64,000 bases of DNA from NCBI RefSeq assembly GCF_900102895.1, contig NZ_FNGD01000005.1, positions 186,001 through 250,000 of the forward strand. Direction: 5' to 3'. The notes beneath the pieces were generated by a model, which had not been told where the DNA came from, made no database searches, and saw nothing but the letters and a program-made list of their open reading frames with translations. Of the stretch, positions 44,324 through 59,140 are shown in pieces. The position numbers and the translations under genes are program-made. Each line of letters begins with the position of its first letter. Position 1 is the stretch's first letter. The DNA comes from Arthrobacter sp. ov407 (GTDB taxonomy: Bacteria; Actinomycetota; Actinomycetes; Actinomycetales; Micrococcaceae).

Positions 44324-47065
44324 TCAGCCGGCCAGGCTGCCGGCGGCCGTCGCGGGGGAGAGCGGGGCATCCACTTGCCGCACCGTTCCGGCGGATCCGT
44401 CTACGGTCACCCTCTGGCCGGTCCGCAGCCGGGTGGTCGCGTCCGGCACGCCCACCACGGCCGGAATCCCGTATTCGCGGGCCACGACTGCCCCGTGCGA
44501 GATCACCCCGCCCATCTCCATGACCAGGGCGCCGGCGGTCATGAACAGCGGCGTCCAGCCGGGGTCGGTGGAGGGTGCCACGAGGATCTCCCCGGGCTCG
44601 AGGTGGGCGCCCACTGGGTCCAGGATGACCCGGACCGTTCCGGTGGCGGTACCCGCCGACGCCGGAGTCCCGGTCAGGGCATCGGAAGCGGGGGACTTGG
44701 CCATTACCGCGGCCTCCACATCCGTGCCGTCGGAGAGCAGGAGCCGCGGGATCCGGCGCCGGCGCAATTCGACGTCGTAGAGCCGGCGGCGGTCCGCCAC
44801 GAGGCCTTTGAGGTCCGCACCCCGCAGACCCACACGCACCTCGTCGAATTCCAGGAAATACACGTCCTCGGCGACGGCGATCGAACCGGACCGGGCCAGT
44901 TCGGCACCGACCTCTTTGAGCTGGCGGCGCATCTCCGCGAGCGCGAGGATGATGTAGAACTTCGGCAGTTCGCGCAGCCCGGACAATTGCCGGGTCCGGC
45001 GCAGGCAGAACTCCACCTGCCGGGCCCGGAGCCGGCTGCGGGCCCCGGTCCGTTCCACCAGGCTGCGGATCCTGGCCTCGGCGTGTTCTTCCGCGCGGGC
45101 GAATTGCCGGTCCGGGGCCTGCTCGGGGTCCTCCACGTGGAGGTAGTTCGAGATCATGCCGAAGATATGGTCCGGCTTTTCCGACCACCGCGGCATGCCA
45201 AGGTCTATCTCCGCCACGGCGCGGTGGCCGTAGCGGTTCAGGAAGCCGTGCAGGCCGGTCTGCGCGACCGCGGGAAGCGCGCCGGCCGCGTATGTGGCGG
45301 CCAGTTCCCGCGGTCCGTGGGCCTCGAACACCTCGCGGGACGCGGCATTCGCGCCGATGGTGACGGCCAGTTGCCAGAGCTCAAGGTCCATCTCGGTGGT
45401 GACGTTGTTGGGCAGTCCCCGCAACACGGCCTCGAGTTCCCGGGGCTCCGCGATGCCGCGCAGCAGCCTCCGGGCACCGGCCAGCATGAGGTAGCCAACG
45501 GACGGTCCGGGCAGCGTCGCCTGGATCAGCCCGTCCACGGTGTTCTCCAGGATGCGTTGGGCGTGATCGAGCCTGCCAAAGGTGGTTGCCGGCTCCGGCA
45601 GGACGAGTTCGGCTTCGAGGCGATTTCCGTAGTCGAAGGCGCGGCGCAGTTCGGCGCCCGGCCGTACCGCGGCCCGCAGCATTGGCGGGATCAGCCGGAC
45701 CATCAAAGCCAGGTTGGCCATGCTATCCGCAGTGCGCGCGGCAGAGCCTCCGGTCCCCGGCGTCCGCGGGGCCGGCGCTCCCGGCTCGGCTGGACGGGCT
45801 CTCCGGGGCGGCCGTTCGCGCACGCCAAACCTCGGATCATCCAGGAGCGCCGGAATGACCGCGCCTGTCCTTCCGTCCGCCAGCGGGAGCATCCGCAGCA
45901 GGTAGCGGCGGCCGTACTTATTCCGGATCAGGGACGTCAGGTCCACATACATGCGCAGGCCCGGGTTTACGTACAGCCACGGTCCTTTTCGGTTCCTCAT
46001 GGAGCCGAGCACTGAGAGCCCCATCGGGGTGAGCGGCCGGGTCAGGCCCTGGAGCAGGGAGCCGCACAGGTACACCCGGGTTTCAGCCGAGGGCCCCGAC
46101 TCCGTGCCAAGGGGTTCGGCGGCGGCAGGGTCCGGCAACGGATACAACGTGGTGATGGGCCTCGACTGGGTGACCCAGATCTTGCCCGCGGCGTCGACCA
46201 CCCATTCCATATCCTGGGGTGCGCCGAAAAGCTGCTGGACGGTATCGCCCAGCGCCGTGAGTTCGCGGATCCGGGCGTCCGTCAGGCTCCGGTGCCGCCC
46301 TGCTGTGGCGGCCCCCGGAGAGCGCATCAGGATGCGTCCCGTGGCGGTCTCCACGACGAAGTGGTCCGGGTTTACACTGCCGGAGGCCACCAGGTGGCCC
46401 GGTCCGGCGCTCGCATTGATGACCGTTTCAGTGCGGGTGCCAGTAACGGGGTTGGCGGTGAACAGCACGCCGGCGCTGGTGGCGGTGATGAGGTCCTGGA
46501 CGACGACGGCGAGCCCCGCCTCGCGGTGGTTGATCCCGTTGGCGGCGCGGTAGGCCACGGCACGTTCCGTCCAGAGGGAGGCCCAGCAGCGGCGGACCGA
46601 CTCGACCACGGCATCGGCTCCGGAGATGTTGAGGAAGGAATCCTGCTGCCCGGCGAAGCTCGCGAACGGCAGGTCCTCGGCGGTGGCGGAGGACCTGACG
46701 GCCACCATGTCCCTGCTGCCGAGCGCCGCATACGCGGTGCGGACGGCGGCATCGACGTCGGCGGGAATCGGAGCGGTCACGATCATTTCCCGCGCCTGCC
46801 GCGCCAGTTCGCCCAAATCGAGGTCGGCGGAGCCCCCTTCTGATTCTGCGACGTCCAGGCCGGACGCCAAGGCGTCCAGTGCCGCAGGGGCAGCCTTTCG
46901 GTAGGCGACGGTGGTGAGGCAGAATCCGCGGGGTACGGGGAAACCGGCCGCCGTGAGCTTGCCGAGGTTCAGGGCCTTTCCGCCCACAAGCGGCACGGGA
47001 GCGGAACCCAGTTCGCCGAGATCCACGACGAGACTGTCTGGTGCCCTGCCATCTGCAGAACCCAT
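44324..47065 (-). CDS. rifampicin-phosphotransferase-like / PEP-synthase-family protein
   Basis: 913 aa. N-terminal ATP-binding domain (about 1-315: LVGGKALNLGKL, AVRSSATAEDLPFASFAGQQDSFLN, WVTQSRPITTLYP), a middle domain (about 330-770) and a C-terminal swivelling phosphohistidine domain with PSTDPGWTPLFMTAGALVMEMGGVISHGAVVAREYGIPAVVGV; His857 is the phosphocarrier. This order (ATP domain, substrate domain, His domain) and the TDPGWTPLF motif match rifampicin phosphotransferase (RPH) rather than canonical PpsA. Whether it modifies rifamycins is not known from sequence. GGGAGCAGGGA precedes the ATG. Confidence 0.85.
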   Translation of the reverse strand: MGSADGRAPDSLVVDLGELGSAPVPLVGGKALNLGKLTAAGFPVPRGFCLTTVAYRKAAPAALDALASGLDVAESEGGSADLDLGELARQAREMIVTAPIPADVDAAVRTAYAALGSRDMVAVRSSATAEDLPFASFAGQQDSFLNISGADAVVESVRRCWASLWTERAVAYRAANGINHREAGLAVVVQDLITATSAGVLFTANPVTGTRTETVINASAGPGHLVASGSVNPDHFVVETATGRILMRSPGAATAGRHRSLTDARIRELTALGDTVQQLFGAPQDMEWVVDAAGKIWVTQSRPITTLYPLPDPAAAEPLGTESGPSAETRVYLCGSLLQGLTRPLTPMGLSVLGSMRNRKGPWLYVNPGLRMYVDLTSLIRNKYGRRYLLRMLPLADGRTGAVIPALLDDPRFGVRERPPRRARPAEPGAPAPRTPGTGGSAARTADSMANLALMVRLIPPMLRAAVRPGAELRRAFDYGNRLEAELVLPEPATTFGRLDHAQRILENTVDGLIQATLPGPSVGYLMLAGARRLLRGIAEPRELEAVLRGLPNNVTTEMDLELWQLAVTIGANAASREVFEAHGPRELAATYAAGALPAVAQTGLHGFLNRYGHRAVAEIDLGMPRWSEKPDHIFGMISNYLHVEDPEQAPDRQFARAEEHAEARIRSLVERTGARSRLRARQVEFCLRRTRQLSGLRELPKFYIILALAEMRRQLKEVGAELARSGSIAVAEDVYFLEFDEVRVGLRGADLKGLVADRRRLYDVELRRRRIPRLLLSDGTDVEAAVMAKSPASDALTGTPASAGTATGTVRVILDPVGAHLEPGEILVAPSTDPGWTPLFMTAGALVMEMGGVISHGAVVAREYGIPAVVGVPDATTRLRTGQRVTVDGSAGTVRQVDAPLSPATAAGSLAG

Positions 47066-47616: not shown

Positions 47617-50010
47617 CTAGGGGGCCAGGATGCGGGCTTCCGGGGCAGCGGACGGTGTCCAGCGCAAGTGCACGGGCGCGCCGTCGATCTCCGGTTCCTT
47701 GAGCAGGGACAGGCGCGGGCGAACGGCGTCGGTCCGGGCGCTCGGCGGTTTCCGGCTGCCGGCCCGGAACGGCAACGCCCACGCGGCGGAGTCGCCCACG
47801 AAGCCCTGTTCGGCGGCGGCGTGCAGCGTCCAGTGGGGGTCGTACAGGTGCGAACGGCCCACAGCGCACAGGTCCGCGCGGCCTGCCAGCAGGATCGAGT
47901 TGACGTCGTCGTAGGAGGAGATGGCGCCAACGGCTATCACAGCCACCCCGGCGGGGGCGGCCACCTCCTGGCGGATCCTGTCCGCGAACGGGGTCTGGTA
48001 GCTGCGCCCGTAGGCAGGCTTCTCCTCCTTGGCGACCTGGCCGCTGGAAACGTCAATGCCCGCGGCGCCGTGATTCACGAAGGCGCGGGCGATCTCCACG
48101 GCGTCATCCACCGTGTTGCCGCCGTCGCACCAGTCCGTGGCGGAGATGCGCACTGTCAGCGGCTTGTGGGCGGGCCAGACGGCGCGGACGGCGTCGAACA
48201 CCTCCAGCGGATACCGCAGCCGGTTCTCCAGGCTGCCGCCGTATTCGTCGGCGCGCTTGTTGGCCAGCGGCGAAAGGAACGCGGAGAGCAGGTAGCCGTG
48301 GGCGGCGTGCACTTCAAGGAGGTCGAAGCCGGCCGCGTCGGCGCGGCGGGCGGCCGCGACGAAGTGTTCGCAGACGTCGTCCATTTCGGCCCGGGTGATT
48401 TCCCGCGGGACCTGATTGCGGTGGCCGTACGGGACGGCGGACGGGCTGGTGACGTCCCAGTTGCCTTCGGCCAGAGGTTCGTCGATGCCCTCCCACATGA
48501 GCTTGGTGGAGCCCTTGCGCCCGGAGTGGCCAATCTGGGCGCCGATCTTCGCGGTGGACTGGGTGTGGACGAAGTCCACGATTTCCGTCCAGCTTTCACG
48601 CTGGGCGTCGGTGTACAAACCGCTGCAGCCGGGGGTGATGCGGCCCTCGGCGGAGACGCACACCATTTCCGTCATGACCAGCCCGGCCCCGCCCATGGCC
48701 TTGCTGCCTAGGTGGACGAGGTGGAAGTTCCCTGGGACGCCGTCGACCGCCGAATACATGTCCATCGGTGAGACGACAATCCTGTTTTTCAGCTCCAGCG
48801 CGCCGATCCGGTACGGCTGGAACATGGCCGGAGCCACCTGGGCCAGGCCCTGGGAGGCGGCGAAGTTCGCGTCCACGTGCCCGGCAAATCCGGGGTCGCG
48901 CAGCTTGAGGTTGTCATAGGTGATGCGACGGCTGCGGGTGAGCAGATTAAAGCAGAACTGAACCGGGTCCTGGTCGTTGTAGTGGCCGATGTTCTCAAAC
49001 CATTCCAGCGAGGCCTGGGCGGCGCGTTGGGTGGATTCGACCACCGGACGCCGCTCGGCCTCGTACGCTGCCAGCGCCTGAACCACACTGGCGTGCTCAT
49101 GCAGGGCGGCGGCCAGCGCCAAGGCGTCCTCCATTGCCAGCTTGGTACCTGAACCGATTGAGAAGTGGGCCGTGTGGGCCGCGTCGCCGAGCAGTACGAC
49201 GTTGCCGGCGCGCCAGTTTTCGTTGCGCACGGTTGTGAAGTTCAGCCACTTTGAATTGTTGGTCAGCACCTGGTGGCCGCCGAGCTCATCCGCAAAGATG
49301 GCGCTGATTTTCGACACCGCCTTTTCATCGGACACACCGGGAGCGAAGACTTCGTTGGCGGTCTCGTCGAAGCCGGCCGCGCGCCAGACGTCCTCAGACA
49401 TTTCGGCGATGAACGTGGAGCCTTCGTCGGAGTACGGGTAGCCGTGGATCTGCATGACGCCCCACTCGGTCTCCTTGACGAAGAACTTGAACGCCTCAAA
49501 CACCTTGTCGGTGCCCAGCCACATGTACTTGTTGCCGCGCACGTCCAAGGTCGGCTTGAACGTGTCGGCGTAGTTGGCGCGGATCTGGGAGTTGACGCCG
49601 TCTGCGGCCAGCACAAGATCGTAGTTGGCTTCCAGCACCTCCACGCGCGGTGCCATGGTGCTGAAGCGGACGTCCACGCCCAGTTCCAGGGTGCGGCGCT
49701 GCAGCAGTTCCAGCAGTTCCTTGCGTCCCATTGCGGCGAAGCCCTGCCCGCCGATCGTGTTCATCTGGTCCTTGAAGTGGATGTCGATGTCGCTCCAGCG
49801 CGCGAAGCGTTGGCTCATGTAGTCGGCCACAACGGGGTCGGCATTGCCGATGCCGCCAAGGGTCTCGTCGGAGAAGACGACACCGAAGCCGAACGTGTCG
49901 CTGGCGGCGTTGCGCTCCCACAGCGTGATTTGGTGGGAGGGGTCCAGCTGCTTCATCAATGCGGCGAAGTACAAGCCGCCGGGGCCGCCGCCAACAATTG
50001 CGATCTTCAT
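47617..50010 (-). CDS. fused FAD monooxygenase / Old Yellow Enzyme (2-aminobenzoyl-CoA monooxygenase/reductase or salicylyl-CoA 5-hydroxylase type)
   Basis: 797 aa with two enzymes. Residues 1-395 form an aromatic-ring flavin hydroxylase: [15 protein letters not shown] (FAD), [11 protein letters not shown] (DG motif) and [25 protein letters not shown] (GD motif). From about 397, an NADH:flavin oxidoreductase barrel begins at [19 protein letters not shown] and has [48 protein letters not shown] and [10 protein letters not shown]. The architecture matches Azoarcus ACMR, which hydroxylates and then reduces 2-aminobenzoyl-CoA; relatives hydroxylate salicylyl-CoA. It is the last gene of the minus-strand operon, 11 nt after the CoA ligase. 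Confidence 0.93.
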
Positions 50011-50021
50011 GGTTTTTGGTC

Positions 50022-51713
50022 CTATCGGGAGTTCGTGGTGGCGTTGATGCGGGCGGGCATCGCATCATCCGCCGCGGGGGCGCCGCAGGCATGCTCGCGG
50101 GCGATGGCTTCGCGGAGCCGGTAATGCTGGAGTTTGCCGCTGGGATTGCGCGGAAGATCGGTCACGAACCGCACGTCGCGGGGGTACTTGTGGGGCGCAA
50201 TTCTCGCCTTGACGAAGTCCTGGATTTCCTTGCGCTTGGCCGCGTCGCCGGCGACGCCGTCAGTCAGGACGACGAACGCGCAGACCACTGAACCGCGTTC
50301 CTCATCCGGGCGGGCTACGACGGCGTTCTCCACCACATCGGGGTGTTCGTTGATGGCGGCTTCCACTTCCGGGGCGCCAATGTTGTAGCCGGAGGACACG
50401 ATCATGTTGTCGGAGCGTGCCTGGTAGACGAAGTAGCCCTCGTCGTCCCGCAGGAACGTGTCGCCGGTGACGTTCCAGCCGTCGTGGACGTAGTTGGCCT
50501 GGCGCGGGTCGTCGAGGTAGCGGCAGCCGGTCGGGCCGATTACGGCCAGCCTGCCGGCTTCGTTGGGCGCCGCTTCGGCGCCGTCGGCATCCAGGATGAT
50601 GGCACGGTAGCCGGGCACCGCCACGCCGGTAGCGCCGGGGCGGATGTCGTCGCCCGCCGCCGAAATGAACACGTGCAGCATTTCTGTGGCGCCGATGCCG
50701 TTGACTAGTTTGATCCCGGTTTCGTCGTAAATGTGCTGCCAGGTCTCCTTCGGCAGGTGTTCCCCCGCGGAGACCGCGATGCGCAGCCGGCTGAGCAGGT
50801 CGCCGCGCCCCGCCTTCAGGATCACCCGGTAGGCGGTGGGTGCGGTGAACAGGATGGAGGCGTTCGCGGCGGCGGCTGCCTCTGCGAGCTCCAGCGGCGT
50901 GCCCCGTTCCGTGAGCAGCGCGGAGGCGCCAAACCGCAGCGGGAACACGACCAGACCGCCGAGCCCGAACGTGAACGCCAGCGGCGGTGAGCCGGCAAAG
51001 ACATCGTCCGGGGTGGGCTTCAGGAGGTGCCGGGCGAAGGTGTCAGCGTTGGCCAGGATGTCTCGGTGGAAGTGCATGGTCACTTTGGGCGTGCCGGTGG
51101 TACCGGACGTCGGTCCCAAAAGGGCGACGTCGTCGGCGGCCGTCGCAACGTTGGCGAAGGATCCGCTTTTGGCGGCACAGCGTGCGGTAAGGTCCGCGCC
51201 GTCGTCCGCGCCGTATGTCATGACCGGCAGCGTTTCTCCGGCGGCGGTGCGCATGTCCTCGACAAAACGGTGGTCCGAGATGGCGACGGTCGGCTTGGTG
51301 AGGCCGATCAGCGTGGAGATCTCGGCGGGGCGCAGCATCGGCATGGTGGTGACGACGACGGCGCCGGCCTTCAGCACGCCCAGCCAGGCCGCGACAATCC
51401 AGGGGTTGTTGGGGCCGCGGAGCAGAACCCGGTTCCCGGGAACCACGCCGAAGTCATCGGTCAACACCTGGGCCACCTGGTTGGCGTGCCGGAGCAGGTC
51501 ACCGTACGTCCAGATGTCCCCATCGGGCGTGTGCAGGGCGGGCCGGCCGGCACCGAACTGGGCGACGGCGTCGTCGATCAACACGGTGGCAGCGTTCAAC
51601 CGGTCTGGGTACTGCAGTTCCGGCAGGGTGAATTCGATTGTGGGCCAGGACTCGGCCGGCGGAAGATGGTCGCGGGTAAAGGTGTCCGCATGGGCCGATG
51701 TCGTCAATGTCAT
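50022..51713 (-). CDS. aryl-CoA ligase (benzoate/2-aminobenzoate-CoA ligase type)
   Basis: 563 aa from the ATG at 51713 with AAAGGAA 5 nt upstream; the 623-aa frame is too long. Adenylate-forming motifs: [19 protein letters not shown] (P-loop), [50 protein letters not shown] and [16 protein letters not shown] (catalytic Lys). The GATEML stretch fits the benzoate-CoA ligase branch. It activates the acid for the fused monooxygenase. Confidence 0.92.
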
Positions 51714-51766
51714 GGCCGTTCCTTTCGGTTGCGATGCGATTGGACAGGGAAAACTGGTGCGCCGGT

Positions 51767-52657
51767 TCAGGCGCGGACCATGCCTTCCTGGGCGACGGTG
51801 GCCAACAGCAGTCCATCGCGGGAGAAGAACCTGCCCATGGCCAGGCCGCGGTTGTGCTGGCCGGAAATTGCTTCTTGTGCGTAGAGCATCCACTCGTCGG
51901 CGCGGACATCGCGGTGGAACCAGATCGAGTGATCCAGGCTGGCCGTGGAGAGTCCGGGTGAGGACCAGCTAAGCCCGTTCACACGCAGCAGCGGTTCCAG
52001 AATCGTGTAGTCGCATACGTACGCCAGGGCCGTTCGGTGCACGTCCGCGTCCTCGGGCAGGCGGTCGAAGTCCTTGACCCAGATCGCCTGCGCCGGGGCG
52101 GCCTCACCTTCCACATGAAGGTAGAGAGGACTCGGGATGTGGCGCATGTCGAAGCTGCGTCCGTGCGACCAGTACTCGGCGGCCGGGCCGGGGACGCCGT
52201 CGAGCACCTGCGCGGCGCTGCGCAGCGACTCGGGGTCCACGGTGGCCGGCATGGCCGACTGGAAGTCGGGCCCGGTTTCCGGCACGTGGAAGGAGCCCAT
52301 CGCGGCAAAAACTGTCTTGCCGTTCTGGTGGCCGCGGACGCTGCGGGTGGAGTAGCCGCGCCCGTCGCGCAGGATCTCCACTTCGTAGCGCACGGCGGCG
52401 CCGATATCTACTGGCCGCATGAAGTAGCTGTGCATGGAATGCAGCGTTCGGTCCGAGTCCACCGAACGCATCATGGCGGCCGCGGACTGGGCCACCATGT
52501 CGCCGCCGTAGGACTTGGGCCACGGGACGTATCCAGTCACTGCCTCGAAGGCCAGGTCATGGACCTGCGCTTCCACGGGAGTCAGCTCGATGGCTTTAAG
52601 GAACGTCTCCGATGTGCCGGCTTCGAAGATGGCGGATTCCCTGTTCATGGAACTCAT
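51767..52657 (-). CDS. acyl-CoA thioesterase II (TesB-type double hotdog)
   Basis: 296 aa. Double-hotdog TesB fold with FEAVTGYVPWPKSYGGDMVAQSAAAMMRSV, LHSMHSYFMRPVDIGAAVRYEVEILRDGRGYSTRSVRGHQNGKTVFAAMGSF and SLDHSIWFHRDVRADEWMLYAQEAIS, in which Asp and Gln are catalytic candidates. It could release a free acid from an aryl- or acyl-CoA intermediate and recycle CoA. The start ATG overlaps the cupin stop by 4 nt. Confidence 0.93.
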   Translation of the reverse strand: MSSMNRESAIFEAGTSETFLKAIELTPVEAQVHDLAFEAVTGYVPWPKSYGGDMVAQSAAAMMRSVDSDRTLHSMHSYFMRPVDIGAAVRYEVEILRDGRGYSTRSVRGHQNGKTVFAAMGSFHVPETGPDFQSAMPATVDPESLRSAAQVLDGVPGPAAEYWSHGRSFDMRHIPSPLYLHVEGEAAPAQAIWVKDFDRLPEDADVHRTALAYVCDYTILEPLLRVNGLSWSSPGLSTASLDHSIWFHRDVRADEWMLYAQEAISGQHNRGLAMGRFFSRDGLLLATVAQEGMVRA

Positions 52658-53133
52658 GCGCGCCGGTAGTCTGCGAGGATTTCGTCCTTGACGTCAGGGA
52701 GGTTGATCACCAGGTTTTCCGGAGTGCGGGCCGTCAGCCACACCAGGTCCTCGGTGACGGACATGTTTGCCTCGACGTGGGGCATGTACGGCGGCACGAA
52801 CACCCAGTCGCCGGTCTTCATGTCCAGGAATTCGGAGTAGTTCTCGCCAAAGTAGATGCGGCCGTGGCCGCGGAGCACATAGCCGCCGGTCTCCGCCTCG
52901 CCGTGATGGTGCGGCAGTGAGCGGTAGCCGGGCGTGTTGGACACTTGGCCGAACCAGATCTTCGTTGCGGGCGTGTGCTGGATGGACACACCGGAGACGC
53001 GGATGCAGTCACCCGACTGGGCGGTGTTCGTGTCCTCTTCACCAGCGCGGGTAACGACGGGCACAACAGCGCCGGCGGCGTTCGCGTAGATGGAGTTCCC
53101 GGCCTCGGCGAGGTTGGTGGTGGTTTCGCTCAT
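52654..53133 (-). CDS. single-domain cupin of the aromatic operon
   Basis: 159 aa from the ATG at 53133 with AGGAG 8 nt upstream. One cupin barrel with metal-site motif PHHHGEAETGGYVLRGHGRIYFGE (candidate His-His-Glu ligands) and a distal His in PPYMPHVEAN. It is far shorter than the bicupin gentisate dioxygenases (about 350 aa), so a known ring-cleaving role is not supported. It could be a small dioxygenase, an isomerase or a ligand-binding helper. It is coupled to the thioesterase by an ATGA overlap. Confidence 0.85.
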   Translation of the reverse strand: MSETTTNLAEAGNSIYANAAGAVVPVVTRAGEEDTNTAQSGDCIRVSGVSIQHTPATKIWFGQVSNTPGYRSLPHHHGEAETGGYVLRGHGRIYFGENYSEFLDMKTGDWVFVPPYMPHVEANMSVTEDLVWLTARTPENLVINLPDVKDEILADYRRA

Positions 53134-53183
53134 GATGCTCACTCCTGGCTGTTTCGTGGTGCTTGCGGGTGCTTGCGGCGTGC

Positions 53184-54044
53184 TTAGTGGCTGGCGGTGG
53201 CGCCCGGGCGGATCCGGACCAGGTTTTCCAGCTGGCCGATCCCGTCAATTTCGGTGCGGAGGACGTCTCCGTCCTTGAGGAAGCGCGGCGGTTCCATGCC
53301 CATTCCGACGCCCCCGGGCGTGCCGGTCAGGACCACGTCACCGGGCCGCAGGGTGGTGAATTGGGAGATATAGGACAGCAGCCGCGCCGGGCCAAACACG
53401 AGCGTGCTGGAGTTTCCGTGCTGGACGAGCTCGCCGTTGACGTGGCCACGCACATCGAAGCCGTGCCCGGCCGGGAATTCGTCCGCCGTGACCAGGACCG
53501 GGCCCAGCGGTGTGGTGGCGTCGAACGCCTTGCCCTGGAACCACTGAAGCGTGCGGCTTTGCCAGTCGCGCATCGAGACGTCGTTGGCCACGGTGTAGCC
53601 GGCAATGGCCGCTGCCGCCTCCTCTTCACCGGCCCGGGTCAGCGTTGCTCCGACAACGACGGCGAGCTCGGCTTCCCAGTCGACGCGCTCGCTGCCGTAC
53701 ACCTCAATGGCGTCTGCGGCGCCAATCAAGGTGTCCGCGTATTTGGCGAAGAGCGTGGGGTAGTCGGGCCGTTCCCGGCCCAACTCCTGGATGTGGTCGG
53801 CGTAGTTCAGGCCGCAGCAGATGACCTTCCCGGCCGTGGGCAGCAGCGCCGCCAGTTCCGCTTCATTGGCAGGGACGACGGCGGACTTCTCACCCTTGGC
53901 CACGGCTGCGACCAGCGCCTGCCAGTCCGGGAGGGCCAACAGCTCCCCAACATCGCGGGCCGGCAGTGGAAGGTAACCGTCCGCGCCGAGCGCTAGGGCC
54001 GCCGTCGTGCCGGTTTCACCGGTGCGCAGGGTGGCAAGTTTCAT
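53184..54044 (-). CDS. fumarylacetoacetate-hydrolase-family protein (fumarylpyruvate hydrolase-like)
   Basis: 286 aa from the ATG at 54044 with AAGGGAA 8 nt upstream. FAH C-terminal domain: ICCGLNYADHIQELG, VDWEAELAVVVG (metal-binding acidic cluster), YTVANDVSMRDWQ, KAFDATTPLGPVLV, VLTGTPGGVGMG. The family includes fumarylpyruvate hydrolase (gentisate pathway) and homoprotocatechuate decarboxylase/isomerase. It is the first gene of the five-gene operon running to the fused monooxygenase and is divergent from ridA. Confidence 0.93.
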   Translation of the reverse strand: MKLATLRTGETGTTAALALGADGYLPLPARDVGELLALPDWQALVAAVAKGEKSAVVPANEAELAALLPTAGKVICCGLNYADHIQELGRERPDYPTLFAKYADTLIGAADAIEVYGSERVDWEAELAVVVGATLTRAGEEEAAAAIAGYTVANDVSMRDWQSRTLQWFQGKAFDATTPLGPVLVTADEFPAGHGFDVRGHVNGELVQHGNSSTLVFGPARLLSYISQFTTLRPGDVVLTGTPGGVGMGMEPPRFLKDGDVLRTEIDGIGQLENLVRIRPGATASH

Positions 54045-54069
54045 GGGTGCTGTTCCCTTCGAGTGTGTG

Positions 54070-54098
54070 TCGACTTTTTTACGACCGTCACATATGCT
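54070..54098 (+). promoter_or_regulatory. candidate ridA promoter
   Basis: TCGACT (54070-54075) and TATGCT (54093-54098) are separated by 17 nt, 4 of 6 matches each to sigma-A consensus, about 75 bp before the ridA start. The -10 lies inside the nested inverted repeat. Confidence 0.4.
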
Positions 54099-54136
54099 CA
54101 ACGTAGCATGAAGGTGACTCCTGTCACAGCATTTTC
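54089..54136. promoter_or_regulatory. nested inverted repeats, candidate operator (PaaX?)
   Basis: ATGCT-(6 nt)-AGCAT at 54094-54109 is flanked by GTCAC (54088-54092) and GTGAC (54113-54117); GTGAC then forms a second repeat with GTCAC at 54122-54126. They lie in the ridA/FAH divergent region. PaaX is encoded next door, so it is the first candidate. Confidence 0.4.
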
Positions 54137-54171
54137 GACAAATTCTTGCCACATACCCTGAAGGAAACTCG

Positions 54172-54564
54172 ATGCCCCACAAGACGATCAACCCGGCGTC
54201 CCTGCCCAAGCCGTCCGGCTACGCCCACGGGATCCTGGCGGGAAACACCGTCTATCTCGGCGGTCAAACGGCGCTGGATCAGGACATGCAAATTGTCCCC
54301 GGCGGCATTGTGGCGCAGTTCAAGCAGGCGTTCAGCAATGTACTGGCCACGCTTGCCGAAGCCGGCGGCGCGCCGGAAGATCTGGTCAGCGTCACGATCT
54401 ACCTCACCGACGTGGACGACTACATGGCGAACGGGCGCGAAATTGGCCGGCTCTGGCGGGAAATGGCCGGCTCTGAATACCCGGCGATGGCAGGAATCGG
54501 CGTCAGTCGGCTATGGCAGAAGGAGGCCTTGATCGAAATTCAGGGCGTTGCGGTGATCCAATAA
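54172..54564 (+). CDS. ridA: RidA-family enamine/imine deaminase
   Basis: 130 aa, RidA/YjgF/UK114 fold. The conserved motif reads AGNTVYLGGQTALDQDMQ, with the mid-protein LATLAEAGGAPEDLVSVTIYLTDVDDYMA and the end IEIQGVAVI. The archetypal catalytic arginine (in CRVAR-like context of E. coli RidA) is not obvious, so it may be a subgroup with another role. RidA proteins hydrolyse reactive imines. In this neighbourhood it could deaminate an amino-aromatic ring-opening intermediate (inference). It is divergent from the FAH operon. Confidence 0.9.
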   Translation: MPHKTINPASLPKPSGYAHGILAGNTVYLGGQTALDQDMQIVPGGIVAQFKQAFSNVLATLAEAGGAPEDLVSVTIYLTDVDDYMANGREIGRLWREMAGSEYPAMAGIGVSRLWQKEALIEIQGVAVIQ

Positions 54565-54594
54565 CGGCCGCGAAGGACAATCGGCAGCGCCCGG

Positions 54595-55455
54595 CTAGGA
54601 CGTCAAGTGACGGGCGTGGGCTGCTGCCATCGGCGCAATAAGCCGGTGTACTTCCAGAAAAGCGTCCCGGGCGGCCATGCCCTTCCAGTCATCGGGCAAG
54701 TATTCCGGCGGAAGGTTGGGGTCCTTGTAGGGGAACCGCCGCCAGATGGTGAGCATGGGAATGTAGTAGCGGAACGCAGCATGCCGCATCTCCGGCGTTG
54801 ATTCGGCGAGTGCTCGTTCCGGGTCATCGCCGAGCAGGGATGTCCATTGTTCGACCCCATCGCCGTACAGGCCGAGAAACTCGCCAAATTGCTCATCGAG
54901 GTCGGCCAGGTCCCACCATTGGGCGACCTTGGCTCGGATGGTGTGGTCGGCAACGTAGTCGCCTTGAAAAAAGTCCACGAACTGGCTCAGTCCCAGCACG
55001 TCGAGCCGTTTCTTCGTTCGCTCCAGTGCCGACAACGGCGCGATCCACACACCTGATGCCATGAAACCAAAACCGAAACCCGCGAGCACTGTGCGCAGCT
55101 GATGGCGGCGGCTGCGCATCGACTCGGGGACAGAGAAGATGGCCAGTATCCAGCCGTCATCGTCTTTGGCGGACGTCGGCGCGAAGATCCGCTCGTCTCC
55201 TTCGCGAAACACCTCTGCCACATTCTCTGCAAGCTCATACTTGGCCACATTCCCGGCCTTGACGCTCTTCAGCACTCCCTTGGCTTTTAGCCTGGACACC
55301 GAGGACCGCACGCCTGGTGCGTCGTAGCCAAGATCGCCGAGCATTTCGATCAACGCGGAGACCGCCAGGGCATCCCCGGATTCCCGGCTATAGAGACCGT
55401 AGAGGGTAATGATCAGTTGCTGGTGCCGAACATGGGGTTCCGGAATAGGAATCAT
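54595..55455 (-). CDS. paaX: PaaX-family transcriptional regulator
   Basis: 286 aa from the ATG at 55455. N-terminal PaaX winged helix (HQQLIITLYGLYSRESGDALAVSALIEMLGDLGYDAPGVRSSVSRLKAKGVL), central domain (GWILAIFSVPESMRSRRHQLRTVLAGFGFGFMASGVWIAPL) and the C-terminal helical domain (HAAFRYYIPMLTIWRRFPYKDPNLPPEYLPDDWKG). PaaX classically senses phenylacetyl-CoA; no paa genes are present, so here an aryl-CoA of the local pathway is the likely ligand (inference). Its ATG overlaps the thioesterase stop by 4 nt. Confidence 0.93.
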   Translation of the reverse strand: MIPIPEPHVRHQQLIITLYGLYSRESGDALAVSALIEMLGDLGYDAPGVRSSVSRLKAKGVLKSVKAGNVAKYELAENVAEVFREGDERIFAPTSAKDDDGWILAIFSVPESMRSRRHQLRTVLAGFGFGFMASGVWIAPLSALERTKKRLDVLGLSQFVDFFQGDYVADHTIRAKVAQWWDLADLDEQFGEFLGLYGDGVEQWTSLLGDDPERALAESTPEMRHAAFRYYIPMLTIWRRFPYKDPNLPPEYLPDDWKGMAARDAFLEVHRLIAPMAAAHARHLTS

Positions 55456-55904
55456 GCCGCGGCCTTGATGGCCGCGCGGAAGCGCTCCGGCCAGGGTGCC
55501 GAAGCGTCCGCGCCGACGGGGACGTAGGCGGTGACAAACGTGCCATCGGCGGCGAGGCCGCCGTCGTGCTCCCCCATGGGGTGGGCGACGACCTCGAAGC
55601 CGAACGTCATGGACTTGCCACCCATTGCCTGAACCCAGAGCGTAGTTGTGACGCGCTGGCCGAACCACAGCTTGGCCCGGAAATTGATCGCCTGGTGCAC
55701 GCGGGGAGCCGATGGAAAGTACTCGGGCAGGTCCAGTTGGCGGAACAGTTCGGCCTCGGCGGATTCGGCCCAGCGCATGATGGCCGAGTTGTGTTGGTGG
55801 CCCGCTGCGTCGGTGTCCACCCATTCGACAGTGCGCTCAATGCTCGCGCTCGAAACACCCGCCTGCGGCGGCCGAGTGCTGGTTTGCGCATCGAGTTCAC
55901 TCAT
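55452..55904 (-). CDS. 4-hydroxybenzoyl-CoA-thioesterase-like (4HBT) protein
   Basis: 150 aa. Single hotdog with the 4HBT signature VEWVDTDAAGHQHNSAIMRWAESAEAELFRQLDLPEYF; Asp in VDTDAAGH is the catalytic candidate. It would release an aryl or acyl carboxylate from CoA. It is coupled to paaX (4-nt overlap), suggesting it removes or regenerates the PaaX ligand. The downstream operon has a second thioesterase. Confidence 0.9.
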   Translation of the reverse strand: MSELDAQTSTRPPQAGVSSASIERTVEWVDTDAAGHQHNSAIMRWAESAEAELFRQLDLPEYFPSAPRVHQAINFRAKLWFGQRVTTTLWVQAMGGKSMTFGFEVVAHPMGEHDGGLAADGTFVTAYVPVGADASAPWPERFRAAIKAAA

Positions 55905-55989: not shown

Positions 55990-57045
55990 CTACGGGGTCA
56001 GGAGAACCTTGATGGCGCGCCTTTCGTCCATGGCGCGGTAGGCCTCGGGTGCCTCCTCAAGCGGCATGACCGAGTCGAACACCCGGCCCGGATTGATGGT
56101 GCCGTCCAGCACGTCGGCCAGCAGTTCCGGGATGTAGGTCCGGGCCGGGGCCATGCCGCCGCCGATCGTGATGTTGGTGTCGAACAGGAAGCGCAGCGGG
56201 GCCTCGGCCCCGCCGGTGGGGACGCCCACAAAGCCGAGTGCGCCGCCTGGGCGGACGCTGTGCAGCGCCTGCTCCATGGATTCCTTGGTTCCCACGCATT
56301 CCAGCACGGAGTCGGCCAGCACTCCGCCGAGCAGTTCGCGGACCTTGGCGACGCCTTCGTCCCCGCGTTCGGCGACGATGTCCGTGGCTCCGAACTCACG
56401 GGCGATCGCCTGGCGGTCGGCGTGCCGGGACATGGCGATGATCCGCTCCGCGCCGAGGCGCTTGGCGGCCAGCACTCCGCAGAGGCCGACGGCGCCGTCG
56501 CCTACCACGACGACCGTCCGGCCGGGGCCGGCCTTGGCGGCGAGGGCCGCGTGGTGGCCGGTGGCCATGACGTCGGAGAGCGTGAGCAGGCTGGCGCGGA
56601 GGGCGTCGTCGGGCTCGGTGACACCCGGAACCTTGACCAGCGTGGACTCGGCGAGCGGCACGCGGACAGCCTGGCCCTGGCCGCCGTCGATCCCGTGACC
56701 GGTGTCATCCTTGCCACCCCAGCCGGCGAGGTGGTCGCAGGCGACCGTGACGCCGTTGAGGCACTGGGGGCACTCGCCGCAGCTGACCAGGAAGGGCGCG
56801 ATCACAAAGTCGCCCACGGCAAGGTCCTTGACGTCCTCGCCGATGCTTTCCACCGTCCCGATGAACTCGTGTCCGATTGCGGACGGCTTGTGGGTGGGCT
56901 TGACGCCGCGGTAGGGCCACAGATCCGAGCCGCAGACGCAGGAGGCGGTGACCTTCACGACGACGTCGGTGGGCAGCTGGAGTGTGGGGTAGTCGCGGTC
57001 TTCGACTCGGATGTCGCCGGGACCGTGGATGATGGTGGCGCGCAT
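55990..57045 (-). CDS. zinc-dependent alcohol dehydrogenase (MDR family)
   Basis: 351 aa from the ATG at 57045 with GAGGAG 5 nt upstream. Catalytic-zinc ligands CVCGSDLWPYRG and GHEFIGTVESIG; structural-zinc cysteines in SCGECPQCLNGVTVACDHLAG; NAD(P) motif VVVVGDGAVGLCGVLAAKRLG. It oxidises an alcohol or reduces an aldehyde; the substrate is unknown. It lies between the paaX and thiolase units, separated from the thiolase by a strong hairpin. Confidence 0.92.
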   Translation of the reverse strand: MRATIIHGPGDIRVEDRDYPTLQLPTDVVVKVTASCVCGSDLWPYRGVKPTHKPSAIGHEFIGTVESIGEDVKDLAVGDFVIAPFLVSCGECPQCLNGVTVACDHLAGWGGKDDTGHGIDGGQGQAVRVPLAESTLVKVPGVTEPDDALRASLLTLSDVMATGHHAALAAKAGPGRTVVVVGDGAVGLCGVLAAKRLGAERIIAMSRHADRQAIAREFGATDIVAERGDEGVAKVRELLGGVLADSVLECVGTKESMEQALHSVRPGGALGFVGVPTGGAEAPLRFLFDTNITIGGGMAPARTYIPELLADVLDGTINPGRVFDSVMPLEEAPEAYRAMDERRAIKVLLTP

Positions 57046-57124
57046 GGGGGCTCCTCGCATTTGTGGTGGATGGGCTGGGAACGAGTTTAGTCGCGCAGAA
57101 CGCCGGCCACGTAGACGAGGACAA

Positions 57125-57188
57125 GCAACGCGGGGTCAGATACGGCCCATTTGCCGCCCGGCATGGGCTGTATCCGACCCCGCGTTGC
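57125..57188. terminator. 64-nt hairpin between thiolase and alcohol dehydrogenase genes; possible dispersed repeat
   Basis: 25-bp arms (57125-57149 and 57164-57188) pair at 23 of 25 positions, beginning GCAACGCGGGGTC, with TGCC/GGCA pairing inside the loop. It starts 3 bp from the thiolase stop, so it is a likely terminator of the sco-thiolase operon. Confidence 0.75.
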
Positions 57189-57191
57189 CTT

Positions 57192-58388
57192 CTAGACGGC
57201 TTCGAGCACGCTGACGTAGTTGGCGATGCCCACGCCGCCCATGTTCTGCACCGCGGCCCGGCGCGGGCTGGCCAGCTGCATGGCTCCGGCCGTCCCGGTA
57301 AGCTGCATGGCGGCGATGACGTGCTGGGAGACGCCGGTGGCGCCGACGGGGTGGCCCTTGGCCTTGAGTCCGCCGGAGACGTTGACCGGCAGCTTGCCGT
57401 CCTTGAAGACCCAGCCTTCCTCGAGCGCCCGGGCCCCCTGGCCGCGTTCGGTCAGTCCCATGGCTTCGTACATGAGCAGTTCGGCGATGGTGAAGCAGTC
57501 GTGGACTTCCGCGAAGTCGAGCTCCTCCAACCCGACGCCGGCCATCCCCAGGGCGCGCTGCCAGGAGGCCCGGGTGGCGGCGAATTCGGTCGGGTCCCGG
57601 CGCTCGGCCGGGAAGAAGTCGTTCGCCTGGCCGAAGCCGGCGAGCCGCACCGGTGCGGTGGCGCCGCCGGTGGGGGCGACGCTGAGGACGACGGCGGCGG
57701 CGCCGTCGGACACGGGGGAGCAGTCGGTGCGGCGCAGCGGATCTGCCACCATCGGGTTCTTGTCCGAGACGGTGCGGCAGAACTCCTCGCCGAGATCCTT
57801 GCGGAGCTGGGCGTAGGGGTTGTCGACGCCGTTGCGGTGGTTCTTCGCCGCGATGGTGCCCAGGACGTCGCCGAGGTTTCCGTTGCCGTCCCCGTAGCGC
57901 TTCCCGTAGTGCTTCGCGACCTCGGCAAAGAGCCCGGTGAACCCCGTGGTGGAGGCCTTGCCGGCCATGTCGTAGTCCGCACCGAGCAGGGCCGCACCCA
58001 CGACGTCGGCCCCGGCCTGCGTCATCTTCTCGGCCCCGATCACCAGGACGGTCTTCGCGGTACCGGCCAAAAGGGACTTGGTGCCCTGCTGGAACGCGGC
58101 CGAGCCGGAGGCGCAGGCGTTCTCGACCCGCGTGGACGGCACGTTGGCCAGCTGGTCCGAGACCTGGAGCGCGAGGGAGGACGGGAAGGCTAGCGGCATC
58201 ATGCCGGAGTTGAACTGGCCGAGGTAGATTTCGTCGATCTGGCCGGGCTCGATCCCGGCGTTGCCGATCGCCTCGGTGGCGACCTGCACGATCAGGGACT
58301 CCAGCGTGTCGTCCGTCAGCTTGCCGAAGCGGCTGTGGCCCCAGCCGGTGAGCAGGACGTCCTTGCCGAACTGTTCCTTCAGGCTCAT
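57192..58388 (-). CDS. thiolase (SCPx-type acetyl-CoA acyltransferase)
   Basis: 398 aa. Thiolase fold with nucleophile Cys92 in [12 protein letters not shown], His in [22 protein letters not shown] and the second region [24 protein letters not shown] in place of the classical NEAFA marks the SCPx/lipid-transfer-type thiolase branch. It cleaves a 3-ketoacyl-CoA or condenses acetyl-CoA. It starts 4 nt inside the CoA-transferase B gene and is the last gene of the operon. Confidence 0.92.
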
Positions 58389-59095
58389 GCCCCTGCCACC
58401 TCCACGGTGTCTTCGATCGCAAGGGTTCCTTCGAGCTCAGGGGCGACGTCGAACTCTGCCTCGGTCTTGTCGCGGATCTCCTCCACGGTGACGCCGGGCG
58501 CCAGCCGGGTCAGCGTCAGCTGCCGGCCTGCGCCTGTTTCTTGTTCATGCTTCACCAGGTCGAAGACCGCGAGGTCGCTGATGATGCGGTCCACGCAGCT
58601 GAGCCCGGTGAGCGGCAGCGTGCATTCCTTGACGATCTTGGCGGTGCCGTCCTTGGCGTTGTGCTCCGTCAGGACCACGACGCGCGGCGTGCCCGCCACG
58701 AGGTCCATGGCGCCTCCCATGCCCTTGACCATCTTGCCGGGGATGGTCCAGTTGGCGAGGTCGCCGGCGCCGGAGACCTGCATGGCGCCGAGGATCGCGA
58801 CCTTCACGTGGCCGCCGCGGATCATGCCGAAGGAGGTCGCGGAGTCGAAGATGCTGCCGCCGGGCAGGACCGTGACGGTCTGCTTGCCGGCGTTGATGAG
58901 GTCGGCGTCTTCCTCGCCCTCGTAGGGGAAAGGGCCCATGCCGAGCAGGCCGTTCTCGCTCTGGAGGACAACGCGGACGCCGTCGGGCAGGTTGTTGGCC
59001 ACCAGCGTGGGGATGCCGATGCCAAGGTTGACGTAGTCGCCGTCGTTCAGTTCTTCGGCCGCGATTGCGGCCATTTCATCTCGGGTCCAAGCCAT
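58385..59095 (-). CDS. scoB: 3-oxoacid CoA-transferase subunit B
   Basis: 236 aa. Family I CoA-transferase beta subunit, with the catalytic glutamate in [29 protein letters not shown] and [44 protein letters not shown]. With ScoA it moves CoA between succinyl-CoA and a 3-oxoacid. Its stop overlaps the thiolase start. Confidence 0.95.
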
Positions 59096-59140
59096 GGTGA
59101 TTCTCCTGAAAACGTGTGGGTGGGCGGCGCGCAGGCCGGA

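What the first reader, a model, noticed from the sequence alone, without database searches (positions are those of the whole stretch)
47617..55904. Possible complete aerobic CoA-dependent aromatic route in an actinobacterium
An aryl-CoA ligase, a fused hydroxylase/Old Yellow Enzyme, two thioesterases, a cupin, an FAH-type hydrolase, RidA and PaaX are packed into three short units. The fused enzyme is of the 2-aminobenzoyl-CoA monooxygenase/reductase type known from Azoarcus. RidA would fit removal of an imine from an amino-substituted intermediate. No canonical ring-cleaving dioxygenase, paa genes or box genes are present. Ring opening by a hydrolase or the small cupin would then be needed, which has not been described to my knowledge for this order of genes.
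Basis: partly seen in the sequence, partly recalled or inferred. Interest (0 to 1): 0.7.

Follow-up and report, generated by a model that had tools for sequence, protein, structure and literature searches.

The report
Alternative ring-opening module for anthranilate
A compact gene set in a soil-type actinobacterium probably breaks down anthranilate (an aromatic amine from tryptophan and indoles) as a CoA ester, and appears to open the ring with a small uncharacterised cupin enzyme plus an acylpyruvate hydrolase, instead of the beta-oxidation-type genes found elsewhere.

Summary
[quoted passage not shown] Anthranilate is the likely substrate. New here is the lower half. Of 88 loci with the fused hydroxylase/Old Yellow Enzyme, 31 carry the small cupin: 31 of these also carry TesB, 28 FAH, and none enoyl-CoA hydratase or acyl-CoA dehydrogenase. 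48 others carry one or both of those two genes and no cupin, TesB or FAH. RidA, ligase and PaaX occur with both sets. The lower sets have replaced each other several times, also in Alphaproteobacteria. Four cupin loci without the fused enzyme all have an FAH nearby. I propose: RidA deaminates the ACMR product to 2,5-dioxocyclohexane-carboxyl-CoA; TesB removes CoA; the cupin cleaves C1-C2 with O2, as Dke1 cleaves beta-diketones; FAH splits the succinylpyruvate into succinate and pyruvate. The cupin step is inference: its model failed and no close solved relative was found. An aromatic (gentisate-type) version is the main rival.

The parts
47617..50010 (-). fused FAD hydroxylase / Old Yellow Enzyme (2-aminobenzoyl-CoA monooxygenase/reductase type, NCBIfam NF006101)
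   Evidence: 1224 bits vs cut-off 1078; 78% identical to the contig-17 copy and 79% to the pAL1 gene; of 13 FAD and OYE residues checked, 12 are invariant in 31 of 31 cupin-type loci and T447 is kept in 28 of 31
50022..51713 (-). aryl-CoA (anthranilate-CoA) ligase; ORF opens at 51893, likely ATG at 51713
   Evidence: benzoate-CoA ligase family model 315 bits, below cut-off 375; 78% identical to the pAL1 ligase, which has measured anthranilate-CoA ligase activity (PMC3534580)
51767..52657 (-). TesB-type acyl-CoA thioesterase
   Evidence: Pfam Acyl_CoA_thio; present in 31 of 31 cupin-type loci and 1 of 57 others; overlaps the cupin gene by 4 nt
52654..53133 (-). small single-domain cupin, 159 aa; proposed ring-opening dioxygenase
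   Evidence: Cupin_2; H75, H77, E81, H119 and N123 invariant in 30 of 30 aligned cupins; an FAH lies nearby in the four inspected cupin loci without the fused enzyme
53184..54044 (-). FAH-superfamily hydrolase, proposed acylpyruvate (succinylpyruvate) hydrolase
   Evidence: AlphaFold2 model pLDDT 89.5; best match 6j57, C. glutamicum fumarylpyruvate hydrolase, Z 37.1, rmsd 1.9, 271 aligned, 40% identity; 49% identical to the FAH beside this genome's gentisate-dioxygenase-like gene
54068..54090 (-). conserved promoter/operator-like element; palindromic core TGACGGTCGTAA at 54079-54090
   Evidence: one window hit for the 23-base form, none in 100 shuffles, but the pattern was derived partly from this site; the 12-base core with one mismatch is no rarer than chance in the window; same core in the RidA-FAH intergenic region of 10 of 31 cupin-type loci
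54172..54564 (+). RidA-family protein, proposed enamine hydrolase
   Evidence: Ribonuc_L-PSP; detected in 30 of 31 cupin-type and 38 of 48 ECH/ACAD-type loci; classical RidA arginine is Met
54595..55455 (-). PaaX-family regulator (ORF opens at 55824)
   Evidence: three PaaX Pfam domains; TIGR02277 137 bits, below cut-off 264
55452..55904 (-). 4HBT_2 hotdog thioesterase, coupled to PaaX by a 4-nt overlap
   Evidence: Pfam 4HBT_2; overlap read from the sequence; a relative was detected in 19 of 31 cupin-type loci

Best explanation
The module degrades anthranilate aerobically as its CoA ester and ends in a ring-opening branch that differs from the beta-oxidation branch of the known pathway. Steps: (1) the ligase makes 2-aminobenzoyl-CoA [activity shown for the 78% identical pAL1 ligase]; (2) the fused enzyme hydroxylates C5 and reduces the ring to 2-amino-5-oxocyclohex-1-ene-carbonyl-CoA [known for the Azoarcus enzyme; inferred here]; (3) RidA hydrolyses the enamine to 2,5-dioxocyclohexane-carbonyl-CoA + NH3 [inferred; a CoA ester of the right acid formula, C7H8O4, was seen only in anthranilate-grown Rue61a]; (4) TesB removes CoA [inferred]; (5) the cupin, as a metal-dependent beta-dicarbonyl dioxygenase, cleaves between the carboxyl-bearing C1 and the enol C2, giving 2,4-dioxopimelate (succinylpyruvate) [inferred]; (6) the FAH hydrolase splits it into succinate and pyruvate [inferred]. 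All seven carbons would reach central metabolism without further beta-oxidation. TesB might act after the cupin instead. PaaX probably controls the divergent RidA/FAH promoters [inferred].
For: Substrate: pAL1 has the same core genes in the same order and its ligase was assayed (PMC3534580, passages); CoA esters of C7H7NO3 and C7H8O4 appeared only on anthranilate. Of 31 cupin-type loci, 10 have kynureninase, tryptophan dioxygenase or an isatin-hydrolase-like gene at over 120 bits nearby (0 of 48 ECH/ACAD-type and 3 of 9 others do); one more lies by aqdC1, and pAL1 is the quinaldine plasmid. Replacement: 31 cupin-type loci have TesB 31, FAH 28, ECH/ACAD 0; 48 ECH/ACAD-type loci have cupin, TesB and FAH 0. 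The cupin label needs 4 changes on a 40-row tree (bootstrap 4-5). Coupling: in 396 genomes of the phylum the fused enzyme is in 44 and the cupin in 4; the 5 cupin genes lie 2.6-2.7 kb from a fused gene (2 of the 5 are this genome's). Cupin to FAH: the four inspected cupin loci without the fused enzyme have an FAH, and module FAHs fall into three groups on the FAH tree. FAH resembles fumarylpyruvate hydrolase and keeps His84, Glu87, Glu124, Glu126, Asp155 and Lys172 in 23 of 23 rows. RidA: none of 71 rows has the classical Arg (68 Met, 2 Leu, 1 Thr); that Arg binds substrate carboxylate (PMC4433059, passages), which a thioester lacks. The 4 loci with a degenerate OYE site lack RidA. Dke1, a 153-aa cupin, cleaves beta-diketones with O2 (PMC4019311, passages).
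Against: No direct evidence for the cupin reaction. Its model failed (pLDDT 41) and the profile finds only weak PDB matches, best oxalate decarboxylase at E 8.6e-5; no comparison with the Dke1 sequence was possible. Classical RidA imine hydrolysis needs the missing arginine, and AmnE, the Rid-family precedent, lists an Arg117 among its conserved cleft residues. L032 (Nocardioides SLBN-35) has FAH, TesB and RidA but no cupin found in its genome. Three cupin-type loci (L023, L024, L040) lack a detectable FAH nearby. Alphaproteobacterial cupin-type loci carry extra SDRs that the scheme does not use and no TesB was detected there. 13 loci with an intact OYE site lack a detected RidA, several on short contigs; one of them, L015, does have an annotated RidA that my query assignment missed. 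The FAH of L107 is distant (33%). Nocardia opaca was reported to degrade anthranilate partly via gentisate (Cain 1968, as cited in PMC4539516), which favours the aromatic rival.
Confidence: 0.45

Rival explanations
1. Aromatic (gentisate-type) version: the intermediate stays or becomes aromatic (5-hydroxyanthranilate or gentisate, possibly as CoA ester); a thioesterase frees it, the cupin acts as a one-domain gentisate- or 5-hydroxyanthranilate 1,2-dioxygenase, and FAH hydrolyses maleylpyruvate.
For: N. opaca was reported to use 5-hydroxyanthranilate and gentisate (Cain 1968, cited in PMC4539516), and the enzyme of that route is called unreported in PMC6221969. A C7H7NO3-CoA (presumably hydroxyanthraniloyl-CoA) was detected in Rue61a, which also converts 5-hydroxyanthranilate cometabolically. 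FAH resembles fumaryl- and maleylpyruvate hydrolases. The extra SDRs of alphaproteobacterial loci could re-aromatise a ring (inference).
Against: H568, H571, Y573 and R498 of the OYE domain are intact in 31 of 31 cupin-type enzymes, although an aromatic route would not need ring reduction. Rue61a, with the pAL1 set and chromosomal paralogues of ligase and fused enzyme, does not grow on gentisate or 5-hydroxyanthranilate; lack of uptake or induction could also explain that. The cupin does not match the gentisate-dioxygenase family (hhalign probability 3%, E 0.013). Two of the four cupin loci without the fused enzyme have a separate alkene reductase.
Confidence: 0.2
2. Hydrolytic opening: FAH (or another hydrolase) opens the cyclic beta-keto acid without O2, and the cupin is an isomerase, hydrolase or accessory protein.
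For: FAH enzymes hydrolyse C-C bonds next to carbonyls (general knowledge). The known pathway continues by enzymes of beta-oxidation (Schuehle 2001, cited in PMC4539516). Cupins are functionally diverse, and the best weak PDB match is oxalate decarboxylase. L032 manages without a detected cupin.
Against: 4-oxopimelate-type products would need further beta-oxidation genes, not found in any of 31 cupin-type loci. The top solved match of the FAH is an acylpyruvate hydrolase.
Confidence: 0.17
3. Salicylate (or benzoate) is the real substrate, as the NCBI family name 'salicylyl-CoA 5-hydroxylase' implies.
For: NF006101 name and score. Streptomyces WA46 is recalled to use salicylyl-CoA (from memory, not from a call).
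Against: The close pAL1 ligase is an anthranilate-CoA ligase; Rue61a grows on anthranilate but not on salicylate or benzoate. RidA is in 30 of 31 cupin-type loci. Neighbouring genes make anthranilate in about a third of these loci.
Confidence: 0.06

Closest known systems
Anthranilate-CoA genes of Arthrobacter sp. Rue61a plasmid pAL1 (ARUE_113p00160-00240)
   Same: RidA, FAH, cupin, TesB, ligase and fused enzyme in the same order and orientation, with a PaaX gene next to RidA; ligase 78%, fused 79%, cupin 82% identical. The match of the record's genes to the old tags is by gene order.
   Different: pAL1 has a second PaaX and its hotdog gene beyond the fused gene; the PaaX beside RidA points the other way relative to the operon. 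The passages read from PMC3534580 discuss only the ligase, the fused enzyme and the regulators; 'cupin' occurs 0 times in its main text.
2-Aminobenzoyl-CoA pathway of Azoarcus evansii
   Same: Ligase and fused monooxygenase/reductase (PMC4539516, passages)
   Different: Further degradation there is ascribed to beta-oxidation enzymes. The cupin, TesB and FAH set stands in their place here. The full Azoarcus gene list was not seen in a call.
Gentisate pathway (gentisate 1,2-dioxygenase + fumaryl/maleylpyruvate hydrolase)
   Same: Cupin oxygenase followed by an FAH acylpyruvate hydrolase; FAH 49% identical to that of this genome's gentisate-type cluster
   Different: One-domain 159-aa cupin instead of a bicupin; proposed substrate is a reduced, non-aromatic ring; no maleylpyruvate isomerase needed
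Dke1 diketone dioxygenase (Acinetobacter johnsonii)
   Same: Small one-domain cupin with cupin His residues; C-C cleavage of a beta-dicarbonyl enolate (PMC4019311, passages) is the proposed chemistry
   Different: Proposed substrate is cyclic and carries a carboxylate or thioester; sequence relation not tested

Membership tests
2-aminobenzoyl-CoA (ACMR) pathway | Full-length fused FAD hydroxylase/OYE enzyme with intact active sites | tested here: met
   NF006101 1224 bits over cut-off; checked FAD and OYE residues present in the window enzyme
2-aminobenzoyl-CoA (ACMR) pathway | Adjacent anthranilate-CoA ligase | tested here: met
   Ligase gene present, 78% identical to the assayed pAL1 ligase; its own activity not tested
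2-aminobenzoyl-CoA (ACMR) pathway | Beta-oxidation-type lower genes (enoyl-CoA hydratase PRK08258 type, acyl-CoA dehydrogenase) nearby | tested here: not met
   No hit in the window from 40 kb on (the part searched) or in any of 31 cupin-type loci; one or both present in 48 others. An acyl-CoA dehydrogenase gene lies farther off at 34140-35405
Gentisate 1,2-dioxygenase (cupin as member) | Bicupin matching TIGR02272 | tested here: not met
   159 aa, single domain; only TIGR03404 at 18.5 bits; hhalign to this genome's own candidate 3% probability
Metal-dependent cupin dioxygenase of Dke1 type | Cupin metal ligands (HxH...E, H) | tested here: met
   H75, H77, E81, H119 invariant in 30 of 30 aligned rows (31 cupins known; partial L011 left out)
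Metal-dependent cupin dioxygenase of Dke1 type | Sequence or fold relation to Dke1; beta-dicarbonyl dioxygenase activity | not testable with these tools
   Dke1 not among the PDB hits, which does not exclude kinship; cupin model unusable; no assay
FAH-superfamily acylpyruvate hydrolase | His-Glu dyad and E/E/D metal ligands (positions recalled from FAHD1) | tested here: met
   N80 Y81 H84 E87 E124 E126 D155 K172 in the window protein; all kept in 23 of 23 rows except Tyr81, which is Phe in two
FAH-superfamily acylpyruvate hydrolase | Closest solved relative is an acylpyruvate hydrolase | tested here: met
   6j57 fumarylpyruvate hydrolase is first by sequence and by structure, Z 37.1; YisK, not an acylpyruvate hydrolase by title, follows at 35.5, 6jvv maleylpyruvate hydrolase at 30.6
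Classical RidA imine deaminase | Arg105/107 essential for imine hydrolysis | tested here: not met
   Met106 in the window; 0 of 71 RidA rows have Arg there (68 Met, 2 Leu, 1 Thr), while the conserved Glu is kept in 71 of 71; requirement from PMC4433059 (passages)
paa or box pathway | PaaABCE or BoxAB genes | not tested
   Not seen among the genes annotated next to the cluster; no model search was run for them

The most novel reading that the evidence does not exclude
A further kind of aerobic ring opening for CoA-dependent aromatic degradation: the ring is first hydroxylated and reduced as a CoA ester, deaminated by a RidA lacking the carboxylate-binding arginine, and then opened by a new family of one-domain cupin dioxygenases that cleave cyclic beta-keto acids to acylpyruvates. 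The cupin+FAH pair would be a portable module that has replaced the beta-oxidation branch several times and also serves other, possibly alicyclic, substrates (loci L096, L106, L107, L112).
Probability: 0.38. Interest if true: 0.78.

Novelty: new variant of a known kind. Interest (0 to 1): 0.6.

Why it matters
The steps after the unusual hydroxylase/reductase of the anthranilate-CoA pathway are vague in the reviews seen: PMC4539516 (2015) says only 'enzymes of beta-oxidation', and PMC6221969 (2018) calls the enzyme of the gentisate-type anthranilate route unreported. The module gives four candidate enzymes that would take the product to succinate and pyruvate, each testable with one substrate. 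It would also give a function to an uncharacterised cupin family and to a RidA subgroup without the catalytic arginine. Anthranilate is a hub in the breakdown of tryptophan, indole and quinaldine and of auxin.

Tried and rejected
Salicylate as the substrate was rejected as above. Locus L062, a possible gentisate variant because RidA, TesB and cupin were not found there, turned out to carry a nitrilase where I expected a gentisate dioxygenase. The thiolase, 3-oxoacid CoA-transferase and Zn-alcohol dehydrogenase genes at 55990-59878 were considered as lower-pathway genes and rejected: at over 150 bits the CoA-transferase queries hit 2 of 105 loci and the other two queries none. The cupin-domain protein inside the Ruegeria ECH/ACAD operon could have broken the dichotomy; it is unrelated (19 bits). 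Structure of the cupin: model unusable, so no fold search was run with it. PHROGs gave nothing for the cupin. A search for 'succinylpyruvate' found 0 papers; a search joining anthranilate, cupin, FAH and salicylyl-CoA terms found one unrelated Campylobacter paper. The early papers on pAL1 and Azoarcus did not appear in the searches, so notes on these genes there cannot be excluded. Supplementary files could not be read.

Limits of the counts: 'cupin-type' is defined by the cupin and 'ECH/ACAD-type' by those genes (over 100 and 150 bits), so only the partner genes are independent. Queries were single proteins, mostly from the window, so distant versions may be missed. Several loci end at contig ends. 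The 50 genomes were chosen by me from the 80. Plasmid loci were picked by me from the hit lists: of 18 plasmid records with a cupin at 60% or more, 13 were inspected and 3 of these lack the fused enzyme in the fetched stretch; the fourth such locus, L096, came. The proteobacterial loci are likewise my picks. Alignment A3 used 22 of 33 FAHs found; fragments and divergent ones were left out.


Full report
WHAT IS THERE. The window lies on contig 11 of a 4.26 Mb genome in 27 contigs. The named genes are present: fused hydroxylase/OYE 47617-50010, ligase 50022-51713, TesB 51767-52657, cupin 52654-53133 and FAH 53184-54044 on the minus strand; RidA 54172-54564 on plus; PaaX 54595-55455 and a 4HBT thioesterase 55452-55904 on minus. 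Cupin and TesB overlap by 4 nt, as do the 4HBT gene and PaaX. A second copy of the module is on contig 17 (L007: PaaX 7851, RidA 8777, FAH 9436, cupin 10379, TesB, ligase 11759, fused 13473, 4HBT 15882), with 78% identity for the fused enzyme and 79% for the cupin.

SUBSTRATE. Plasmid pAL1 of Arthrobacter Rue61a holds PaaX, a small hypothetical gene, RidA, FAH, cupin, TesB, ligase, fused enzyme and PaaX. These nine genes match by order the tags ARUE_113p00160 to 00240 of PMC3534580. The passages read there report anthranilate-CoA ligase activity for 00220 and for a chromosomal paralogue. They report growth on anthranilate but not on salicylate, benzoate or gentisate, and only cometabolic conversion of 5-hydroxyanthranilate. 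CoA esters of C7H7NO3 and C7H8O4 were found only in anthranilate-grown cells. The window ligase is 78% identical to 00220. Of 31 cupin-type loci, 10 have kynureninase, tryptophan dioxygenase or an isatin-hydrolase-like gene above 120 bits, against 0 of 48 ECH/ACAD-type and 3 of 9 other loci; proteobacterial ECH/ACAD loci do have such genes (L116, L118, L120, L121). Rhodococcus erythropolis BG43 has the module beside aqdC1, annotated as a 2-heptyl-3-hydroxy-4-quinolone dioxygenase. The window itself shows no such neighbour among the genes I annotated. Anthranilate is therefore the likely substrate, not salicylate as the family name suggests.

TWO LOWER MODULES. I compared 88 loci with the fused enzyme: 80 named loci from one scan, the window, its contig-17 copy and 6 plasmid loci. 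By tblastn (recounted) 31 carry the cupin, 48 carry enoyl-CoA hydratase (42) and/or acyl-CoA dehydrogenase (41), and 9 carry neither set clearly. TesB is in 31 of 31 cupin loci and 1 of 57 others. FAH is in 28 of 31 and in 5 of 57 others (0 of the 48). ECH/ACAD is in 0 of 31. RidA is in 30 of 31 and 38 of 48, ligase in 29 and 39, PaaX in 28 and 41. In 50 whole genomes chosen from these a cupin match of 278 bits or more was found in 12 of 12 cupin-type genomes and in 0 of 38 others (best there 77 bits). In 396 genomes drawn over the phylum the fused enzyme is in 44 (E 1e-150) and the cupin in 4 (E 1e-30). The 5 cupin genes lie 2.6-2.7 kb from a fused gene; no cupin at that threshold was found in the 352 genomes without the fused enzyme, nor in 40 of the 44 with it (the handles indicate the same draw). 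Two of the five are this genome's.

REPLACEMENT HAPPENED MORE THAN ONCE. On the 87-row tree the cupin label needs 3 changes. L040 and L042 carry the cupin set while their fused enzyme sits among ECH/ACAD-type ones. On a 40-row tree with proteobacterial plasmid loci it needs 4 (4-5 in bootstrap trees). Two alphaproteobacterial pairs (L109/L111 and L108/L110) carry cupin and FAH with no ECH/ACAD hit, each next to an ECH/ACAD-type sister (L120, L122). Eight proteobacterial ECH/ACAD loci (L015, L116-L122) have no hit to the window cupin or FAH, though L015 has an annotated FAH-family gene in a neighbouring run of genes. A fused enzyme found with either lower set suggests a common intermediate.

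CUPIN AND FAH GO TOGETHER. Four inspected cupin loci lack the fused enzyme in the fetched stretch: L096 (51% cupin), L106 (79%), L107 (79%) and L112 (64%). All four have an FAH within about 4 kb, two with SDRs and two with an alkene reductase; the L107 FAH is distant (33%). More distant cupins (37-40%, L097-L101) show none. FAHs that accompany the cupin fall into three groups on a 23-row tree: a Streptomyces/Lentzea group (100/96), an alphaproteobacterial group (98/100) and the rest (93/90, also holding the gentisate-cluster FAH). This looks like repeated recruitment, with the deeper branching weakly supported. The window FAH models well (pLDDT 89.5). Its best structural match is C. glutamicum fumarylpyruvate hydrolase (Z 37.1, rmsd 1.9, 271 residues, 40% identity), then YisK (35.5), diketo-deoxyrhamnonate hydrolase (33.8) and others, with maleylpyruvate hydrolase at 30.6. 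It is 49% identical to the FAH beside this genome's gentisate-dioxygenase-like gene.

RIDA AND THE REDUCED RING. None of 71 RidA rows has the classical arginine: 68 Met, 2 Leu, 1 Thr; the conserved Glu is kept in 71. PMC4433059 (passages) says this arginine contacts substrate carboxylate and is essential for imine hydrolysis. A CoA thioester has no such carboxylate, so its loss fits a thioester substrate, but this is inference. A Rid-family enzyme, AmnE, deaminates 2-aminomuconate in an aromatic pathway (PMC6742747, passages), although it lists an Arg117 among conserved cleft residues. The OYE residues H568, H571, Y573 and R498 are intact in 31 of 31 cupin-type and 48 of 48 ECH/ACAD-type enzymes. 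Four loci of the third group have lost one or more of them, and none of these four has a detected RidA; 13 loci with intact residues also lack one. This weakly links RidA to the reduced product.

MECHANISM. The simplest chain uses every conserved gene: ligase; hydroxylation and reduction; RidA to 2,5-dioxocyclohexane-carbonyl-CoA (acid C7H8O4, the formula seen in Rue61a); TesB; cupin cleavage of C1-C2 to 2,4-dioxopimelate; FAH to succinate and pyruvate. Dke1 is a precedent for a 153-aa cupin cleaving beta-diketone enolates with O2 (PMC4019311, passages). The window cupin keeps H75, H77, E81, H119 and N123 in 30 of 30 aligned rows. TesB before cupin is favoured because related cupins (64-79%) occur in loci with no CoA ligase annotated nearby, but this is not shown. 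The cupin reaction itself has no direct support: the model failed and PDB matches are weak.

REGULATION. The RidA-FAH intergenic region holds a conserved stretch with the core TGACGRYCGTMA at 54079-54090. The core is in that intergenic region in 10 of 31 cupin-type loci. It occurs 5 times in this genome, two of them in the two module promoters (counted). It also occurs in 6 of 48 ECH/ACAD-type loci. With one mismatch allowed the core is no rarer than chance in the window. A PaaX operator is a guess.

WHAT SPEAKS AGAINST. Nocardioides SLBN-35 (L032) has the set without a detected cupin. Three cupin loci lack a detected FAH. Alphaproteobacterial versions have no detected TesB and carry extra SDRs, the best family match of two of them being trans-4-hydroxycyclohexanecarboxylate dehydrogenase, below cut-off. 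An old report of gentisate in N. opaca (cited in PMC4539516) favours the aromatic rival. The general claim that the cupin/TesB/FAH set is an alternative lower branch is well supported; the exact chemistry is not.

VERDICT. The cluster is a further copy of a known type of module, and its upper half is known chemistry. I saw no description of the replacement of the lower branch in the listings or in the passages read; most listed papers were not opened. It makes an old gap in anthranilate degradation testable.

Noticed in passing
window 55990-59878: Zn-alcohol dehydrogenase, thiolase-domain protein and 3-oxoacid CoA-transferase subunits B and A directly beside the module; hardly seen with it in relatives.
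   Followed up: partly
window 44324-47065: PEP-synthase-like protein with partial similarity to rifamycin-inactivating phosphotransferases (558 bits, cut-off 999).
   Followed up: no
L114 (own genome contig 22, 68226-69245 and neighbours): Separate gentisate-type cluster: bicupin dioxygenase, FAH hydrolase and a regulator that looks IclR-like by eye.
   Followed up: partly
L106, L107, L112, L096: Cupin plus FAH in loci without the fused enzyme, with SDRs or alkene reductases, TRAP or MFS transporters, and in R. ruber MaoC-type dehydratases and a CoA ester lyase: unknown catabolic pathways that may use the same ring-opening pair.
   Followed up: partly
L062, L068, L075, L083: Fused enzymes with degenerate Old Yellow Enzyme active sites and no detected RidA; L062 and L075 have a nitrilase, L075 and L083 an isatin-hydrolase-like gene: possibly a hydroxylase-only variant.
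   Followed up: partly
L032 (Nocardioides sp. SLBN-35): Module with FAH, TesB and RidA but no cupin detected in the genome; a flavin reductase and an AndR-like AraC-type regulator lie nearby.
   Followed up: partly
   Followed up: no
window 54079-54090 and L010:13663-13674: TGACGRYCGTMA palindrome, a candidate PaaX-family operator in several fused-enzyme loci.
   Followed up: partly
L118:13538-13990 and L122:17713-18165: Cupin-domain proteins unrelated to the window cupin, in Ruegeria inside the ECH/ACAD-type operon.
   Followed up: partly
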